Notes under the pieces: generated by a model
What the model was told of the DNA's origin: nothing
Seen by the model: the letters and a program-made list of their open reading frames with translations, nothing else
Database searches by the model: none
Part shown: in pieces, positions 47,687-54,781 of the stretch
Numbering within the stretch: the stretch's first letter is position 1
Layout: each line of letters starts with the position of its first letter
Assembly (NCBI RefSeq): GCF_015209965.1
Contig: NZ_MU158690.1
Location: 814,088-878,087, forward strand
Origin: Sphingobacterium pedocola
GTDB taxonomy: Bacteria > Bacteroidota > Bacteroidia > Sphingobacteriales > Sphingobacteriaceae
Reading direction: 5' to 3'
DNA: 64,000 nt
Position numbers and translations under genes: made by a program

Positions 47687-48328
47687 ATGGGAACAATTAG
47701 AAATGGAATCAACGGCGGCTTCAAAGGTAAAGCCGGCAGTGTAATCGGCAGCAGCTGGAAAAGTATTGAATACATCAAGGGGCTGTACAAAAAGCGTACT
47801 AAGCCGGCCACTGAAGAGCAGCTGATGCAGCAGGCGAAATTCACGACGGTCATGCGCTTTCTACTGCCTGCCACACCATTGGTTCGTATTGGATTTGGGC
47901 AAAAAAAGGCGGATAAGGCCACGGCGGGAAATATGGCCCTACAGGCAAACCTGCAACTTGCGTTGACCGGCGACTATCCGGATTATGCCCTGGATTACGC
48001 CAAGGTACGCATCAGCGATGGCTTTTTTCTGGCAGGTGGAGCACCCACCGCGTTAGTTGATGCGGGCAACCTTGAGGTAACCTGGGACCCGACACTGAGC
48101 TCACTGTATGATACGCGGGAAGACGATAAGGTTTATATCCTCGTTTATCAACCCACGATCGACGAATTCTTGACCGCGCCCGAACCTCCATCTCGGGGCG
48201 ACGGTTCGGTCAGCATTGCGCTCCCCAACCACTTCTTAGGTGCTGCGGCACATGTGTGGATATTTTTTGCAGACCGCAAAAATGTGAAGGTATCCAAGAG
48301 TTCATACCTAGGCGAGTTGGCACTCTAG
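47687..48328 (+). CDS. DUF6266 family protein
   Basis: A 213-residue protein beginning MGTIRNGINGGFKGKAGSVI, the signature opening of DUF6266. WKSIEYIKGLYKKRTKPATE and the FFADRKNVKVSKSSYLGELA end are also typical. No signal peptide. Function unknown; these proteins occur in multiple copies in Sphingobacteriaceae, often near DUF5675 and small membrane proteins, a set reminiscent of phage or toxin-delivery cargo (inference). It has its own promoter and is followed by a strong terminator at 48343-48388. Confidence 0.88.
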   Translation: MGTIRNGINGGFKGKAGSVIGSSWKSIEYIKGLYKKRTKPATEEQLMQQAKFTTVMRFLLPATPLVRIGFGQKKADKATAGNMALQANLQLALTGDYPDYALDYAKVRISDGFFLAGGAPTALVDAGNLEVTWDPTLSSLYDTREDDKVYILVYQPTIDEFLTAPEPPSRGDGSVSIALPNHFLGAAAHVWIFFADRKNVKVSKSSYLGELAL

Positions 48329-48342
48329 GCGAGGTTTAATCA

Positions 48343-48388
48343 GAGGGGCTGCCGCAGATCAGCTAGCGGATTTCGGTAGCCCCTTTTT
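48343..48388 (+). terminator. Intrinsic terminator after the first DUF6266 gene
   Basis: GGGGCTGCCG at 48345 pairs with CGGTAGCCCC ending at 48383, followed directly by TTTTT. Classic intrinsic terminator. Confidence 0.85.
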
Positions 48389-48400
48389 AATACAGAAGCG

Positions 48401-48952
48401 ATGGAATGTATATCAAACTTTGCAAAAAAGAAGACAGGTGATGGCACAGATGGTCGCCTGGAAGTGTGGCTGCGGTTTAAGGTGGCCCGACAGTTTTTGA
48501 CGCCCTTGACGCGGCTCATCAACATGGGTTTCGCGACGAAGAAGCGTGGGAAAACTCCGCTGGGAAGAGCAATGTCCTATACCCTAAAGGGCTGTATGGA
48601 GGGGACGTATCCGGATATCCGGGTCAATCCTGAACTGGTGCAGCTTAGCAATGGAAGTGCAGTCATACCGCTTGACGCTGTAGCGCTGCGACAGGACGGT
48701 GTAATCCAGATCAGCTGGCGTCCTGATTCCGACGGCATCGCGTGCTTTCACGACGATGGTGTCATTGTTTGCGCTTATCATGTCGAAAGTGCCGTGGCCG
48801 GTATCAATGAAACGACAGCCATAAGAAGCGATGGAAGAACGGAACTGGTGTTGCCTGTACAACTGGTCGATAAGCCTGTGCATGTGTACGCTATGGCCCA
48901 CTGCCGCCACAAGAAAAATTTTTCACGAACTGTGTATCTGGGGGAGCATTAG
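48401..48952 (+). CDS. DUF6266-related protein, divergent second copy
   Basis: A 183-residue relative of the preceding protein. It lacks the MGTIRNGINGG opening and instead starts MECISNFAKKKTGDGTDGRL, then aligns in the core (RFKVARQFLTPLTRLINMGF versus RFLLPATPLVRIGFG; ISWRPDSDGIACFHDDG versus VTWDPTLSSLYDTRED) and at the end (ARCH-type tail HKKNFSRTVYLGEH versus RKNVKVSKSSYLGEL). The missing N-terminus may indicate a truncated duplicate still expressed, because it sits just after a terminator without an obvious promoter. Its stop codon is the first base pair of a heptamer array. Confidence 0.7.
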   Translation: MECISNFAKKKTGDGTDGRLEVWLRFKVARQFLTPLTRLINMGFATKKRGKTPLGRAMSYTLKGCMEGTYPDIRVNPELVQLSNGSAVIPLDAVALRQDGVIQISWRPDSDGIACFHDDGVIVCAYHVESAVAGINETTAIRSDGRTELVLPVQLVDKPVHVYAMAHCRHKKNFSRTVYLGEH

Positions 48953-49250
48953 TGACTAGGGGCTCGTGATTAGTGACTGGTGACTAGGGGTTAGAAACCA
49001 GGGGGCAGAACTGTTGTTCTCGTCTTTGCGAGGAGCATAGCGACGCGGCAATCTTAGAAGGCTAGGAGTTAGAGACTAGTGACTATGAGTGTATTTGTCG
49101 TCACTGCGAGGAGGCACGACGCGGCAGTCTTTTTAAGTACTAAGATCGCCACACCTTCGTACCTCAGGTTCGCGATGACGTTGTAACGGTCATACATCTA
49201 ACATCTAAAGTCTCACATCTACGATCTCAATACTTAATACTTAATACTAA
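48952..49250. repeat. Heptamer arrays H2/H3 with embedded GCGACG-type repeats
   Basis: Units begin at the last base of the upstream stop codon: GTGACTA GGGGCTC GTGATTA GTGACTG GTGACTA GGGGTTA GAAACCA (48952-49000). They resume at 49058-49085 and again, C-rich, at 49194-49249 (ACATCTA ACATCTA ... AATACTT AATACTT AATACTA), ending five bases before the next ATG. Two GC-rich elements are embedded, about 49018-49055 and 49099-49182. Both contain TGCGAGGAG and GACGCGGCA words. The second is a long imperfect hairpin (CGTCACTGCGAG / TCGCGATGACG) of the widespread Bacteroidota intergenic repeat type. Confidence 0.7.
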
Positions 49251-49254
49251 CAAA

Positions 49255-49667
49255 ATGACAACAACGATAACCCTCCATCTCCGGCGGAAATACGGGGAGC
49301 GGGGCACTAACGTAACGGCACGATCTATTTTCTAGGAGAACCGATCTGCCACACGATAGAACTGCCCTGGCAGGACAATACGCCAAACAAAAGCTGTATT
49401 CCCGAAGGACGCTACAAGCTCGAAAAAAGGGTTTATCCCAAAAATGGGGAGCAGGTTGGAATTCCATCTGTACAGGGACGCGAAGCGATCCTGATCCATG
49501 CCGCAAACAACGCTGCGACGGAAATAAGAGGCTGCATTGCCCCGGTTACGACGCTGACAGGTGAAGGTACAGGCGACGAAAGCGCAAAAGCCCTCAAAGA
49601 GCTGAAATCCCTCGTTTACGGGCTGTGGGATATGGGAGCAGAAGTTTACTTGGAGATCAGGGGTTAG
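49255..49667 (+). pseudogene. DUF5675 family protein, frameshifted by a 5-base duplication
   Basis: ATG 49255 opens TITLHLRRKYGERGTN and hits a stop after 26 codons. In the -1 frame the protein continues GTIYFLGEPICHTIELPWQD, SCIPEGRYKLEKR, ILIHAANNA, RGCIAPVTTLTG and ends at 49667, which is the DUF5675 family. TAACG is tandemly duplicated at 49308-49317; removing one copy restores an uninterrupted frame of about 135 codons. The rest of the sequence is intact, so the lesion is recent, a sequencing error, or a phase-variable switch. Function of the family is unknown; a peptidase/hydrolase-like role has been guessed for phage and effector-associated members. Confidence 0.8.
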
Positions 49668-49806
49668 GAGCTAGGTGATCGGGGAGCGGGAATCGGGTAG
49701 CCGAGAACGGGAATCGGATTTCTGATTCCCGATTCCGGTTCTCACATCTAATATCTAAAATCTAATGTATAACATCTTAATACTCAATACTTAATACTTA
49801 ATACTA
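49660..49806. repeat. Heptamer array H4, 21 units from stop codon to start codon
   Basis: Tiles as 21 heptamers: GGGGTTA GGAGCTA GGTGATC GGGGAGC GGGAATC ... CGATTCC GGTTCTC ACATCTA ATATCTA ... AATACTC AATACTT AATACTT AATACTA. The first unit contains the stop codon of the DUF5675 gene, and the last ends two bases before the ATG at 49809. Same polarity and order as array H1. Confidence 0.75.
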
Positions 49807-49808
49807 TT

Positions 49809-50165
49809 ATGCGTAACATTATAAACAAAATCAGCAAAGCGGTACAGGTGGTACTACTTGCTCCAATCAAGTTGCCGGGGAAGGCATTGAATATTCTAAA
49901 ATACGTAGCTGTCGGTTTAGGCATCATCGAATCCGTTCTGGATAATGGGAAGCCGGAATCGGAAACCCGAGACCAGAAAGGGAAACAGGAACATAGCGGC
50001 GAAGAGAGCAGAGACGATGGCGCTTCAACCGGCATTGCCCATCCGCCTGCGGAAGTGAACCTTGATGATGACGCAAGTGTAGAAACTGAGCAGGCGGCTT
50101 ACTCTGCACAATCGGATATCGTGCGGCCGAACACGGCTGCAGAAAAGGAGGTAAGTGATGAATAG
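49809..50165 (+). CDS. Hypothetical protein with amphipathic N-terminus and acidic tail
   Basis: A 118-residue protein. The first ~45 residues (IINKISKAVQVVLLAPIKLP, NILKYVAVGLGIIESVL) form an amphipathic or membrane-associated helix, the rest is a low-complexity acidic tail (QKGKQEHSGEESRDDGAST, NLDDDASVETEQAA). No family was recognised. It overlaps by eight bases the following 54-codon membrane protein gene, so the two are coupled. With the DUF5675 gene upstream this resembles the small, poorly characterised trios in Bacteroidota that combine a DUF5675 protein with holin-like small proteins (inference). Confidence 0.6.
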   Translation: MRNIINKISKAVQVVLLAPIKLPGKALNILKYVAVGLGIIESVLDNGKPESETRDQKGKQEHSGEESRDDGASTGIAHPPAEVNLDDDASVETEQAAYSAQSDIVRPNTAAEKEVSDE

Positions 50166-50322
50166 TCATGGTGGTGGTTGGTTTCCCGTGCTGGGCGGAA
50201 GCTGTTGCAGCATCATGGGTTTAATTCCTTGGCACAACCTCCTGCAGACGGTGGTATTAGCTATCGTAGGCACATTGGTGAGTTACCTACTGACGCGGCT
50301 ATTGCAGGGTAGAAAGAAGTAA
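50158..50322 (+). CDS. 54-residue small membrane protein (holin-like?)
   Basis: Overlaps the upstream gene by eight bases with a good Shine-Dalgarno-like GGAGG at 50147-50151. The product starts MNSHGGGWFPVLGGSCCSIM and has one hydrophobic helix (LLQTVVLAIVGTLVSYLLTR) followed by a positive tail (LLQGRKK). The size and topology fit a holin-like or anchor protein. Below common ORF length limits, but coupling, RBS, and the terminator 34 bases after the stop support it. Confidence 0.6.
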   Translation: MNSHGGGWFPVLGGSCCSIMGLIPWHNLLQTVVLAIVGTLVSYLLTRLLQGRKK

Positions 50323-51105: not shown

Positions 51106-51136
51106 TTGTTTTTTTAAATAAAACCGAGTACTTTTG
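51106..51136 (+). promoter_or_regulatory. Bacteroidota promoter for the winged-helix gene at 51158
   Basis: TTG (51106-51108), 20 bases, TACTTTTG (51129-51136) is an exact consensus. It overlaps the TTG at 51134 that opens the long frame, which argues for the ATG at 51158 as the start codon. Confidence 0.7.
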
Positions 51137-51157
51137 TTGCTCAATGCTACTGATGCT

Positions 51158-51673
51158 ATGTTAGAAACCCTGATTACGTCCAAGACGCGACTAAAGCTTT
51201 TGATTAAGTTTTTTGTCTATGCTACCAACAAGGGTTACTTGCGAGGCTTGGCGGAAGAATTTCATGAATCGACCAATGCGATCCGTAAAGAACTTAATCA
51301 GTTGACAGATGCGGGCTACCTAACCCGCGAGCAGCAAGACAATAAGGTGATATACCAAGCGAACAACCAACACCCACTTTTCAATTCTCTTCAGCGACTG
51401 ATCCGGGATTACCTGGGAATGGATGAGCTGATTGATAATATATTTGCAAAGGCGGGCGACATTGAACAGATCAGTTTGATGGGTGATTACGCAAGAGGCA
51501 TCGATTCTGGAACATTAGAAGTATGTATATTAGGAAATGATCTCGATACGGATTACTTATCGCGGTTAGCAAATAAGTCATCGGAGCTTTTAAAAAAATC
51601 CGTGAAACTTTATTTTGAAAAGTCGCCCGTAGCCGTACATCAGATCATACTGTTTAAAAAAATAGGCGGATAG
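51158..51673 (+). CDS. Winged-helix regulator with nucleotidyltransferase-like C-terminus
   Basis: A 171-residue protein that starts MLETLITSKTRLKLLIKFFV. It has a winged HTH (RGLAEEFHESTNAIRKELNQ, DAGYLTREQQDNKVIY) and a C-terminal domain resembling an inactive MNT-type fold (GDIEQISLMGDYARGIDSGT, LEVCILGNDL). Genes of this kind commonly sit at the head of surface-polysaccharide loci in Sphingobacteriaceae and may regulate them. The strong promoter lies in front. The stop codon is inside the first unit of an octamer array. Confidence 0.75.
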   Translation: MLETLITSKTRLKLLIKFFVYATNKGYLRGLAEEFHESTNAIRKELNQLTDAGYLTREQQDNKVIYQANNQHPLFNSLQRLIRDYLGMDELIDNIFAKAGDIEQISLMGDYARGIDSGTLEVCILGNDLDTDYLSRLANKSSELLKKSVKLYFEKSPVAVHQIILFKKIGG

Positions 51674-51729
51674 GCGGATACGCAGATAGGCAAATTCGCG
51701 AATACGCAAATACGCAAATACGCAAAAAG
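51666..51729. repeat. Octamer array O1
   Basis: Eight units: GCGGATAG GCGGATAC GCAGATAG GCAAATTC GCGAATAC GCAAATAC GCAAATAC GCAAAAAG. The first contains the upstream stop codon; the last ends five bases before the ATG at 51735. Consensus GCRAATAC. Confidence 0.75.
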
Positions 51730-51734
51730 AAAAA

Positions 51735-52247
51735 ATGATAGAAACTAACCGCATAGAACACAAAGAAAGGTTAACTGACCATCTCGAAAAGGAGGTTGTT
51801 GCGTTCTTGAATTATCTTGGCGGTGGGATGATTTATCTTGGTATTGCTAAAGACGGTATGCGGATCTTTCGGGATATGGAATTGGTAGAACAGTTGGGAT
51901 CTGCTGTGCCGAGAATTTTACGCGCCTATGCAAAAGAGTGTTTTCAGTTTTCGACCAATTTTATCAGAATGAGTTTTCCAATTAATCCCAGCATAGAGCC
52001 TGTCGGTGTAAATGAGGGATTAAATGTCGGTGTAAATGTCGGTGTAAATGTCGGTTTAAATGAATTGTTGGAGATCATTCGGAATAGCCCCGGAATAAAT
52101 GCAAAAAAAATAGCTCAGTATTTTGATGTAGCCGACCGTACTTTGGAGCGTTGGCTAAAACAATTGAGAGACGAAGATAAAATCATATTTAAAGGAGCGC
52201 CCAAGACAGGGGGATACTTTATAAAGGAGAAGCAAATACGCGAATAG
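51735..52247 (+). pseudogene. AlbA_2-type ATP-binding protein with large in-frame internal deletion
   Basis: A 170-residue ORF. Its start (EYK-type: MIETNRIEHKERLTDHLEKE, VAFLNYLGGGMIYLGIAKDG) is that of the AlbA_2/Schlafen-like ATP-binding proteins. It then jumps directly to their late part (MRIFRDMELVEQLGSAVPRI, YAKECFQFSTNFIRMSFPI). Full-length relatives are about 450-500 residues and carry ~280 residues between these two points, including the HATPase-like region. The deletion kept the frame. The C-terminus has a short GVN/GLN repeat (NVGVNVGVNVGLNE) and a winged helix (INAKKIAQYFDVADRTLERW). Possibly still expressed, but unlikely to retain the original activity. Confidence 0.7.
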
Positions 52248-52279
52248 GCTAATTCGCAGATTCGCGACTACGCAAATAA
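52232..52279. repeat. Octamer array O2
   Basis: Six units GCAAATAC GCGAATAG GCTAATTC GCAGATTC GCGACTAC GCAAATAA. The first two units encode the last codons and stop of the upstream gene. The array ends just before the A-rich RBS region of the gene at 52286. Confidence 0.7.
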
Positions 52280-52285
52280 AAAAAG

Positions 52286-52643
52286 ATGAGAATATTCTAT
52301 TTCGAAAAATTGGAGGTGTGGCAAGAATCTAGAGCTTTGGTGAAAGAACTATATTTGGAGACCAAAAGTTTTCCGGTGGAAGAAAAGTTTGGCTTAATAT
52401 CACAAATAAGACGAGCTGCCCTAAGTATTTCCGCTAATATTGCGGAAGGTATGTCGAGAGGGACAGAAAAGGATAAAGCACGTTATCAATCAAGCTTTTG
52501 GTTCAGCTATTGAGGTAGTCAATTTTTTAGTGTTGGCAAACGATTTAGAATTTTTGACAGATGAAGTGTATATAAAATTACGAGAAAAAACAGAAAAGAT
52601 TACGAATCAGTTGAATAGTTTGTATAATAAGTTTAATAAATAG
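52286..52643 (+). pseudogene. Four-helix-bundle protein (23S rRNA IVP-like), frameshifted
   Basis: The first frame encodes MRIFYFEKLEVWQESRALVK, ISQIRRAALSISANIAEGMS and RGTEKDKARY, the usual first two helices of the S23/four-helix-bundle family. After about 52484 the other half continues in a shifted frame: INQAFGSAIEVVNFLVLAND, LREKTEKITNQLNSLYNKFN. Family members read KxRF-xxQAxGSxxE at this junction, so about two bases are missing near 52484. Together the two parts make a complete ~118-residue protein. The function of the family is unknown; it was first noted in 23S rRNA intervening sequences. Confidence 0.8.
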
Positions 52644-52889
52644 GCGAGTACGCGAATATGCGAATCTGCAAATAGGCAAACGTGCAATTAAACAAGAAAT
52701 ACGGCATAGAAATTGTTGTTAGCAGGCAAGTCATCGGAATGTTACAAAAATCCGTTAACTTTATTTTGAGAAACAACCGTATTAGTACATTTATTATTTT
52801 AAGCAGATCCGCAGATTCGCAGATATGCAGTTAAGCAAATCCGCAGTTAAGCAAATAAGCAAATATGCAGTTAGGCAAATAAGCAGTTT
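52644..52889. repeat. Octamer arrays O3 and O4 around a short unique stretch
   Basis: O3 (52644-52691) follows the stop codon directly: GCGAGTAC GCGAATAT GCGAATCT GCAAATAG GCAAACGT GCAATTAA. A stretch of ~110 bases with no recognisable gene follows; it includes a short block similar to the C-terminal coding end of the gene at 51158 (KSVKLYFE-type). O4 (52803-52890) is eleven units alternating GCAGTTAA-like and GCAAATAA-like, and its last base is the A of the ATG at 52890. Confidence 0.7.
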
Positions 52890-53372
52890 ATGAAATCGGA
52901 AACTAGTAAAAACTTGGACACAAACATTAAAAGCGATAGACATAGTATGCGCGTTGGTATTACCTTTTCGGCGTTCGACCTGTTACATGCAGGACATATC
53001 AAGATGCTCGAAGAGGCCAAACGCCAATGCGATTACCTCATTTGTGGTTTGCAGGTAGATCCTACCTTAGATCGTCCAGAAAAAAATAAACCCAGCCAGA
53101 CCGTTGTAGAACGCTATATCCAACTGTCGGGTTGTAAGCATGTCGATGAGATCGTACCTTATTTAACCGAGCAGGATTTGGAAGATGTTTTGCGTTCATT
53201 TCAAATCGATGTGCGTATATTAGGTGATGAATATAAAGATAGAGACTTTACGGGCAGAGCATATTGTGAAGAAAAAGGAATAGAGCTTTATTTCAATACA
53301 CGCGATCACCGTTTTTCGAGTTCTGGATTAAGAAAGGTGGTTGCAGAGAAGGAGAATGGAAAAAAGGGTTAG
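52890..53372 (+). CDS. Cytidylyltransferase-like protein (TagD/RfaE C-terminal type)
   Basis: A 160-residue nucleotidyltransferase. The HxGH motif is in VGITFSAFDLLHAGHIKMLE (about residue 33). DYLICGLQVDPTLDRP follows, and the C-terminus carries FSSSGLRK, the counterpart of the ISTTxIR motif of glycerol-3-phosphate cytidylyltransferases. It activates a small phosphate (glycerol, heptose or similar) for incorporation in a surface polymer; the exact substrate is not evident. The first 19 residues are not part of the fold, and ATG 52947 could be the functional start, but the octamer array abuts the ATG at 52890. It precedes the dehydrogenase gene, first of the sugar operon. Confidence 0.78.
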   Translation: MKSETSKNLDTNIKSDRHSMRVGITFSAFDLLHAGHIKMLEEAKRQCDYLICGLQVDPTLDRPEKNKPSQTVVERYIQLSGCKHVDEIVPYLTEQDLEDVLRSFQIDVRILGDEYKDRDFTGRAYCEEKGIELYFNTRDHRFSSSGLRKVVAEKENGKKG

Positions 53373-53416: not shown

Positions 53417-54781
53417 ATGCAAACCGAGCGAAGCGAGTTCATGGATGCGATAAAGAATAAACAAAACTCCGTAGTAGGCGAATTCGCGAATACGCAAATT
53501 AAAAAAATTGCCATTATCGGGCAAGGATATGTAGGTCTTCCGTTGGCCATTGAATTTGCATCACATTTTCCAGTGGTGGGATTTGATATTAATGCAGATC
53601 GTGTTGCGGAATTGAATGAAGCCAAAGATAGTACACGTGAAGCAGATTTAGACAAGCTGGAGACGGTTATCAAAACAGCGAGAGATACCAATTTTGTAAA
53701 GGGCTATCGTGCTTCTTCTTCATTAGATGACATTCGGGAAGCACATATTTTTATTGTGACTGTACCCACGCCTATTGATCGTTACAACTCGCCGGATTTA
53801 CAACCGTTACTGAAAGCGACTACCATGTTAGGCGAAGTGATTAAATGTGGAGATATCGTGATTTACGAATCCACGGTCTATCCGGGTTGCACCGAAGAAG
53901 AGTGTGTTCCGCTATTGGAACAGATCTCCGGATTAACCTTTAACACCGATTTTTTTGTTGGTTATTCACCCGAGCGGATCAATCCGGGCGACAAGGTAAA
54001 TACGCTGACAACCATAAAAAAGGTGACTTCGGGTTCCACACCCGCAATTGCCGAGGAAATAGATCAATTATATCAAAAAATTATATTGGCTGGCACGCAT
54101 AAGGCACCTTCAATTAAAGTAGCGGAGGCGTCAAAAGCAATCGAAAATGCCCAACGCGACGTCAATATCTCGTTCGTTAACGAGCTGGCATTGATATTTG
54201 ACCGTGTTGGTATTGATACCAATGATGTGTTGGAGGCAGCAGGTACCAAATTCAACTTTTTGAAATATAGACCCGGTTTGGTTGGTGGACATTGTATATC
54301 CGTTGATCCGTATTATCTAGCGCATAAAGCGGAGCAACTGGGTTATCATCCAGATGTGATTCTATCCGGTCGTCGGGTAAATGATTCTATGGCCCGCTTT
54401 GTCGCTTCCAAAGTGGTTAAATTAATGATCGGCAAGGGTATCAACGTCAAGGATTCAAAAGCATTGATATTAGGTATTACGTTTAAAGAGAATTGTCCCG
54501 ATGTACGGAATACCAAAGTAATAGATATCCGTAAAGAATTGATTGAATATGGTGTTGAGGTCGATATTTACGATCCGTGGGCGGATCGCGAAGAAGTTTC
54601 TCACGAATACGGCATCAAGTTGCTAAGCGAATCACCAGTCACCAAGTATGAAGCGGTGATATTGGCTGTAGCGCATCATGAATTTTTAACATATAATATT
54701 AAATCATTAACAAGAGATACGAGTGTCGTATTTGATATCAAAGGTTGTTTAGACCGAAATAACGTAGACGCAAGATTGTAA
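53417..54781 (+). CDS. tviB: UDP-N-acetyl-sugar 6-dehydrogenase (TviB/WbpO type) with repeat-derived N-terminus
   Basis: A 454-residue NAD-dependent nucleotide-sugar dehydrogenase. It oxidises the C6 of UDP-GlcNAc/GalNAc to the uronic acid. The Rossmann motif is [20 protein letters not shown], the catalytic Cys region is [15 protein letters not shown], and [15 protein letters not shown] is typical of the TviB/WbpO branch. The first ~30 residues (VGEFANTQI) are encoded by three octamer-repeat units (53478-53501) and are absent from the family. The normal start would be the codon before KKIAIIG, which is ATT here instead of ATG. Another in-frame ATG is at 53441. Product uronic acids feed surface polysaccharides. 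Confidence 0.88.
53478..53501. repeat. Octamer array O5, inside a coding region
   Basis: GCGAATTC GCGAATAC GCAAATTA, three units in phase. They are translated as part of the N-terminal extension of the dehydrogenase. The following ATTAAAAAAATTGCC would be the usual ATG AAA AAA ATT GCC start of the family. Confidence 0.65.

What the first reader, a model, noticed from the sequence alone, without database searches (positions are those of the whole stretch)
51666..52890. A different octamer repeat family fills the next set of gaps
From 51.67 to 52.89 kb every gap is built of GCRAATAC-type octamers (O1 to O4, up to 11 units), again starting at a stop codon and ending at or just before an ATG. The same polarity and stop-to-start placement as the heptamer arrays, but a different unit length, points to a shared mechanism acting with different repeat words in neighbouring regions.
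Basis: seen in the sequence. Interest (0 to 1): 0.65.

Follow-up and report, generated by a model that had tools for sequence, protein, structure and literature searches.

The report
Octamer arrays framing an IVP gene
The octamer arrays are real; two of them are the mirror-image flanks of a small "intervening-sequence protein" gene, and such genes across bacteria and archaea turn out to sit between mirrored arrays of degenerate 7- or 8-letter words, which looks like a widespread, undescribed foldback-type DNA element.

Summary
Four arrays of a degenerate octamer (GCRRATNN) lie at 51666-51729, 52232-52279, 52644-52683 and 52803-52889, with a short fifth inside the next ORF. Chance does not explain them: the whole genome has 108 hits, the reversed pattern 0. 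They are not a strict stop-to-start feature; about 35 sites genome-wide include convergent and divergent gaps. The unit is constrained: GC in 54 of 54 units, AT in over 90%, variation confined to the other four positions.

Arrays 2 and 3 flank a frameshifted IVP/S23-family gene (PF05635) and are complementary in register. This generalises: in two sets of IVP loci (53 and 76, several phyla), upstream and downstream flanks match as inverted repeats in 38 and 53 loci, against 7/103 and 10/226 mismatched pairs. Most words are 7-mers, some 8-mers. The word follows the genomic site, not the protein.

Best reading: foldback-like arms, as in 23S rRNA intervening sequences (IVP ORF between terminal inverted repeats), but built of degenerate tandem words between protein genes. 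No RNA-level selection was seen. Mobility and function are inferred, not shown.

The parts
51134..51673 (+). Winged-helix regulator-like gene (weak DUF7342 match) at the head of a surface-polysaccharide locus; its stop codon now lies inside octamer array 1
   Evidence: ORF; Pfam; orthologues in 41 of 48 same-genus genomes at a polysaccharide locus
51666..51729 (+). Octamer array 1, 7 units plus a degenerate eighth, ends 5 bp before the next ATG
   Evidence: same gap has about 2, 6 and 20 units in G024, G003 and G043
51735..52247 (+). Schlafen/AlbA_2-type gene, about 0.8 kb shorter inside than its G024 counterpart; stop TAG lies in array 2
   Evidence: Pfam; blastn gap against G024
52232..52279 (+). 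Octamer array 2, 6 units, upstream (left) arm of the IVP gene
   Evidence: pairs in register with array 3
52286..52643 (+). [quoted passage not shown]
   Evidence: Pfam (two halves in two frames); intact in G043
52644..52683 (+). Octamer array 3, 5 units, downstream (right) arm of the IVP gene
   Evidence: fold of arm2+loop+arm3 z -5.1
52718..52773 (+). Degraded duplicate of the 3' end of the winged-helix gene (51565-51621)
   Evidence: 83% over 58 columns, E 9e-11
52803..52889 (+). Octamer array 4, 10 units plus a partial, ends directly at the ATG of the cytidylyltransferase gene (52890)
   Evidence: G003 has only about 3 units before the same ATG
53478..53501 (+). Three-unit octamer remnant inside the N-terminal extension of the UDP-sugar dehydrogenase ORF 53417-54781
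49669..49808 (+). Heptamer gap used for comparison: G-rich forward words, central inverted repeat, C-rich reverse words; octamers fill the same gap in three paralogous operons

Best explanation
The octamer arrays are arms, and leftover or duplicated arms, of a foldback-like element. SHOWN: a short DNA word, degenerate at fixed positions, is tandemly repeated on both sides of an IVP (S23/Avd-like four-helix-bundle) gene, and the two sides are inverted repeats of each other in register. This architecture recurs around IVP genes in many phyla, mostly with 7-bp words and in a minority with 8-bp words, and each site has its own word. At this locus arrays 2 and 3 are the two arms; array 4 follows a duplicated 3' end of the upstream gene, as array 1 follows the original. 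Array length differs between related species at the same gap (about 2 to 20 units), and the IVP gene is present or absent at the same place. INFERRED: the arms are what the IVP protein, or the process that inserts its gene, recognises or creates at DNA level. Because the word belongs to the site rather than to the protein, arms would be made or remade from local sequence after arrival, grow and shrink by unit duplication and deletion, and be kept as inverted copies. INFERRED: gaps just after stop codons are where insertion is tolerated, and arrays without an IVP gene are empty or decayed elements that then serve as recombination patches for gene gain and loss.
For: IVP association: 20 of 30 loci have a 7/8-mer array within 150 bp versus 1 of 30 ParE loci and 56 of 891 genes of the contig. 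Inverted flanks: 38 of 53 versus 7 of 103 cross-locus pairs, 1 of 30 ParE, 1 of 28 winged-helix loci; independent multi-phylum set 53 of 76 versus 10 of 226. In-register copies: mean z 3.0, 39 of 47 above 1.65, window 2.8. Window arms 2+3 fold with z -5.1. Same locus in G043 has array-IVP-array. IVP gene absent in G003, G024, G048 at the same place. Homology between two IVP copies of G020 at different sites is confined to the gene. Words follow site: 21 of 28 syntenic versus 1 of 24 non-syntenic pairs. Constrained unit.
Against: Most octamer and heptamer arrays in this genome have no IVP gene. No recent insertion with a clean empty site and no target duplication was caught; IVP copies within a genome are mostly only 56-87% alike. 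About 30% of IVP loci show no inverted arms by my threshold. The IVP gene here is frameshifted. Nothing shows that the IVP protein touches the arms.
Confidence: 0.5

Rival explanations
1. The arrays are RNA-level devices: long imperfect hairpins in operon transcripts that are cut by RNase III, stabilise or end mRNA, or insulate translation, as with 23S rRNA IVS stems; the IVP gene is merely carried in the loop.
For: Arms 2+3 fold well (z -5.1), arrays 1 and 2 alone z about -3. IVS stems in rRNA are cut by RNase III (PMC4990558). Many single octamer sites are short palindromes just after stop codons, like terminators.
Against: Mismatches between arms show no excess of G-U-compatible changes (74 vs 73). 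Arrays 3, 4 and 5 alone fold no better than shuffles and a heptamer gap gives z -0.07. Arrays also lie in divergent gaps.
Confidence: 0.25
2. Plain replication slippage: a chance short repeat after a stop codon expands and decays; no function and no element.
For: Unit number differs between related species, and the G043 array contains exact 24-bp (three-unit) duplications.
Against: Variation is concentrated at four of eight positions (p 4e-16). Slippage does not explain in-register inverted copies on the two sides of IVP genes or their strong link with one gene family across phyla.
Confidence: 0.08
3. Translation or transcription control: the arrays are binding sites for a regulator next to start codons, as proposed for TAACTGA repeats in Beggiatoaceae.
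For: Arrays 1, 2 and 4 end 0-6 bp before an ATG, as in MacGregor 2015 (PMC4679880).
Against: Octamer arrays also occur in convergent gaps, which have no start codon; words differ from site to site and even between paralogous operons.
Confidence: 0.12

Closest known systems
23S rRNA intervening sequences (IVS) with an S23p/IVP ORF, e.g. Coxiella burnetii (PMC4990558)
   Same: IVP-family ORF placed between complementary terminal sequences that can form a long stem; described as a selfish element.
   Different: Here the element lies between protein genes, not in rRNA; the arms are tandem arrays of a degenerate 7- or 8-bp word rather than a unique 28-bp stem; many arrays have no IVP gene.
TAACTGA heptamer direct repeats of Beggiatoaceae, Cyanobacteria and some Bacteroidetes (MacGregor 2015, PMC4679880)
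   Same: Intergenic short-word tandem arrays, often just upstream of start codons, also in Bacteroidetes with mixed other heptamers and array-free relatives.
   Different: One exact word there; here degenerate 8-mers with fixed and free positions, words differing by site, and inverted pairing around IVP genes, which that paper does not mention.
Eukaryotic foldback (FB-type) transposable elements (own knowledge)
   Same: Long inverted ends built of short tandem repeats, with or without a coding centre.
   Different: No transposase is known here; word is site-specific and not carried with the gene; no recent movement shown.
Avd accessory protein of diversity-generating retroelements (PMC10053308)
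   Same: Same protein superfamily: Avd (4DWL) and PF05635 (2GSC) are reported as homologous; the G043 IVP matches 2GSC at 2e-21.
   Different: No reverse transcriptase or template repeat was searched for at this locus and none is among the annotated neighbours.
REP/BIME and other short palindromic extragenic repeats (own knowledge)
   Same: Intergenic, often after stop codons, partly palindromic.
   Different: Units of 7-8 bp in tandem rather than 20-40 bp palindromes; words change from site to site.

Membership tests
IVS-type element (IVP ORF between terminal inverted repeats) | ORF of the IVP/S23 family | tested here: met
   PF05635 at 52286-52643, frameshifted here, intact in G043
IVS-type element (IVP ORF between terminal inverted repeats) | Complementary flanking sequences around the ORF | tested here: met
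   In-register inverted arms, window z 2.8 and fold z -5.1; 38 of 53 and 53 of 76 loci in general
IVS-type element (IVP ORF between terminal inverted repeats) | Location inside a 23S (or 16S) rRNA gene | tested here: not met
   Window locus lies between protein genes of a polysaccharide locus
IVS-type element (IVP ORF between terminal inverted repeats) | Excision from the transcript by RNase III | not testable with these tools
   Needs RNA data
TAACTGA-type heptamer repeats | Exact TAACTGA unit, period 7 | tested here: not met
   Unit is GCRRATNN, period 8
TAACTGA-type heptamer repeats | Mostly forward and just upstream of start codons | tested here: inconclusive
   True for window arrays 1, 2 and 4; 8 of 26 intergenic sites are divergent or convergent
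Foldback-type transposable element | Inverted ends made of short tandem repeats | tested here: met
Foldback-type transposable element | Mobility with its own ends (same ends at new sites, target duplication) | tested here: not met
   Words follow site, not gene; no target duplication seen; gene itself occurs at unrelated sites
Diversity-generating retroelement | Reverse transcriptase plus template and variable repeats near the Avd-like gene | not tested
   No dedicated search; none among the few neighbouring ORFs annotated

The most novel reading that the evidence does not exclude
PF05635 IVP proteins belong to a previously undescribed class of bacterial and archaeal foldback-like elements. 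At each new site the element builds inverted arms of a site-derived 7- or 8-bp word, degenerate at fixed positions, without carrying its arms from the old site; the many unexplained heptamer and octamer arrays in bacterial intergenic gaps would be filled, empty or decayed copies.
Probability: 0.25. Interest if true: 0.93.

Novelty: new variant of a known kind. Interest (0 to 1): 0.76.

Why it matters
Short-word arrays in bacterial gaps have been noted for years (for example TAACTGA heptamers in Beggiatoaceae, cyanobacteria and Bacteroidetes) without an accepted origin, and PF05635 is a family of unknown role, known mainly from rRNA intervening sequences and as a relative of the retroelement protein Avd. 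Tying the two together gives both a testable hypothesis: IVP proteins act on, or with, inverted arrays of 7- or 8-bp words. The arrays also mark gaps where genes were gained and lost in a surface-polysaccharide locus.

Tried and rejected
(2) rRNA context for three near-identical octamer sites: no Rfam hit; they are paralogous DUF5675-type operons. (3) RNA-level selection through G-U bias: absent (74 vs 73). (4) Arms travelling with the IVP gene: rejected, since words track site, not protein; the first, unsplit analysis looked like word-protein coupling, but that was synteny. (5) 'The dispersed words of a genome equal the words of its IVP sites': clear for the AGTATTR heptamers, not for the octamers. 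(6) Neutral slippage alone: rejected by position-specific variation. (7) Recent transposition bursts: not found, related IVP copies within a genome are mostly 56-87% alike; two identical copies in G010 lie in a longer identical stretch of at least 2.7 kb. (8) First IVP alignment too divergent to scan with; a four-sequence alignment worked. (9) Literature: no paper found in the held open-access library linking IVP genes with heptamer or octamer arrays. (10) Integron attC hairpins considered from memory and set aside because the arms here are tandem arrays; not tested.

Full report
What is there. The window is G000:C2:814088-878087 of a 5.23 Mb genome. Between 51.66 and 52.89 kb there are four arrays of a degenerate octamer with consensus GCRRATNN, at 51666-51729, 52232-52279, 52644-52683 and 52803-52889, and a three-unit remnant at 53478-53501 inside the next ORF. 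Chance is excluded: 108 three-unit hits genome-wide against 0 for the reversed pattern. A de novo scan of 1.2 Mb finds intergenic tandem arrays chiefly of periods 7 and 8, with none of these periods in a local shuffle.

Correction to the finding. Arrays 1 and 2 fit the stop-to-start description, with the stop codon in use lying inside the array. Array 3 starts at a stop but runs into about 110 bp that contain a degraded duplicate of the upstream gene's 3' end, and array 4 follows that duplicate. Across the genome about 35 octamer sites are mostly intergenic and often within a few tens of bases after a stop, but they include 5 divergent and 3 convergent gaps. The stop-to-start rule is therefore not general.

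The unit. In 54 units from the window arrays and from the syntenic G043 gaps, GC is invariant (units were phased on GC), A5 and T6 are 91% and 96% conserved, positions 3 and 4 are almost always purines, and positions 7 and 8 vary. Variation is far from uniform (p 4e-16), so the arrays are not just decaying duplicates. Among IVP-flanking arrays of other words, 17 of 40 show non-uniform variation at p<0.05. GC and AT are self-complementary dinucleotides and GCRRATYY is its own reverse complement rotated by four, so a one-way octamer array can still pair with another one.

The gene in the middle. [quoted passage not shown] In G043, another species of the genus, the same locus reads: winged-helix gene, about 20 octamers, intact IVP gene, about 7 octamers, cytidylyltransferase. 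G003, G024 and G048 have no IVP gene there and have shorter arrays; G024 and G048 have a different palindromic cassette in its place. All three IVP genes of this genome lie beside arrays, each with a different word.

It is general. Among 30 best-scoring IVP loci of 50 relatives, 20 have a 7/8-mer array within 150 bp, against 1 of 30 ParE toxin loci and 56 of 891 genes of the contig. Comparing the upstream flank with the reverse complement of the downstream flank, 38 of 53 IVP loci score 16 or more against 7 of 103 mismatched pairs. In an independent set of GTDB loci 53 of 76 do, against 10 of 226, including Thiohalocapsa, Planctomycetaceae, Patescibacteria-type, ANME-1 and Fibrobacter records. 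Shuffling units within one arm lowers the match in most loci (mean z 3.0; 39 of 47 above 1.65; window 2.8), so the arms are inverted copies in register and not merely arrays of the same word. The window's arms 2 and 3 fold together with z -5.1.

Site, not protein. Related IVP copies within a genome are mostly 56-87% alike, and two that are 81% alike sit between unrelated genes, with homology confined to the gene, so IVP genes have moved over evolutionary time. Among IVP pairs of at least 55% identity, 21 of 28 syntenic pairs but only 1 of 24 non-syntenic pairs share their arm words. Arms are therefore not simply carried along; they belong to the site. Numbers are small for the closest non-syntenic pairs, and faster evolution of the arms after a move cannot be excluded.

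Heptamers and octamers. The operon next door gives a natural experiment. The gap between its DUF5675-like gene and the next ORF is a two-part heptamer array in the window (49669-49808) but a pure octamer array in three paralogous copies in the same genome. In other species the corresponding gap has other 7/8-mers, or none.

Mechanism. I think the arrays are foldback-like arms associated, now or formerly, with IVP genes, comparable to rRNA intervening sequences, where an IVP ORF lies between terminal inverted repeats (PMC4990558). That the arms act at DNA rather than RNA level is inferred from the lack of a wobble signature. That the IVP protein makes or recognises them is inferred from the association alone. 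IVP proteins are relatives of the accessory protein Avd of diversity-generating retroelements (PMC10053308) and match the solved structure 2GSC, which makes a nucleic-acid role plausible but does not show it.

Limits. Gene calls are from my own simple caller. Only one unrelated gene family and one core gene served as controls. IVP loci were chosen by best score. No insertion event was caught. The held literature is open-access only, so the absence of an earlier report is not proof of novelty. The name DUF5675 for the gene before the heptamer gap is from memory and was not tested with a family search.

Noticed in passing
window 52286-52643: The IVP gene is frameshifted near 52495 (two halves match PF05635 in two frames), while G043 has an intact copy: pseudogene or sequencing error.
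   Followed up: partly
window 51735-52247: The Schlafen/AlbA_2-type gene lacks about 0.8 kb in its middle compared with G024 and contains a 12-bp in-frame tandem repeat (TGTCGGTGTAAA).
   Followed up: partly
window 47687-50322 and C1:2007656, C1:2242814, C5:7236, C1:225696, C2:715388, C2:685, C3:1398 of G000: An operon with DUF6266-type genes exists in about 8 diverged copies in this genome and several in relatives; several copies lie near contig ends, so they probably break assemblies.
   Followed up: partly
gaps upstream of the small ORF of these operons (e.g. C1:225696, C2:715388; G048 and G024 copies): Heptamer gaps contain nested copies of another repeat, CTCGTCTTTGCGAGGAGCATAGCGACGCGGCAATCTT, and a CTTTTGCAAAATAAGATCGCGTCACCC stretch.
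   Followed up: no
G024 C23 about 524.7-525.1 kb (L241), G048 C22 (L243), window 53417-53470: A palindromic cassette ACCGAGCGTAGCGAGCTCATGGATTCCAT...ATCATCCATAATA sits in gaps where G000 has octamers or the IVP gene.
   Followed up: no
window about 49257-49668: The gene before the heptamer gap looks frameshifted compared with its paralogues at C1:2007847 and C5:7427.
   Followed up: no
C2:476688-476737 and C2:1006095-1006142 of G000: Two divergent gene gaps carry a 10-bp tandem array (ACGGACTTNA), possibly binding sites of a regulator.
   Followed up: no
G057:C2:43900-50200 (L317) and G020 (13 PF05635 matches): Some genomes carry many IVP genes, three within 4 kb in G057, each with its own flanking word: good material for tracing how arms arise.
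   Followed up: partly
G049 (class relative, many contigs): A distant relative has about 50 octamer hits of a related but different word family (GCAGATKA).
   Followed up: no
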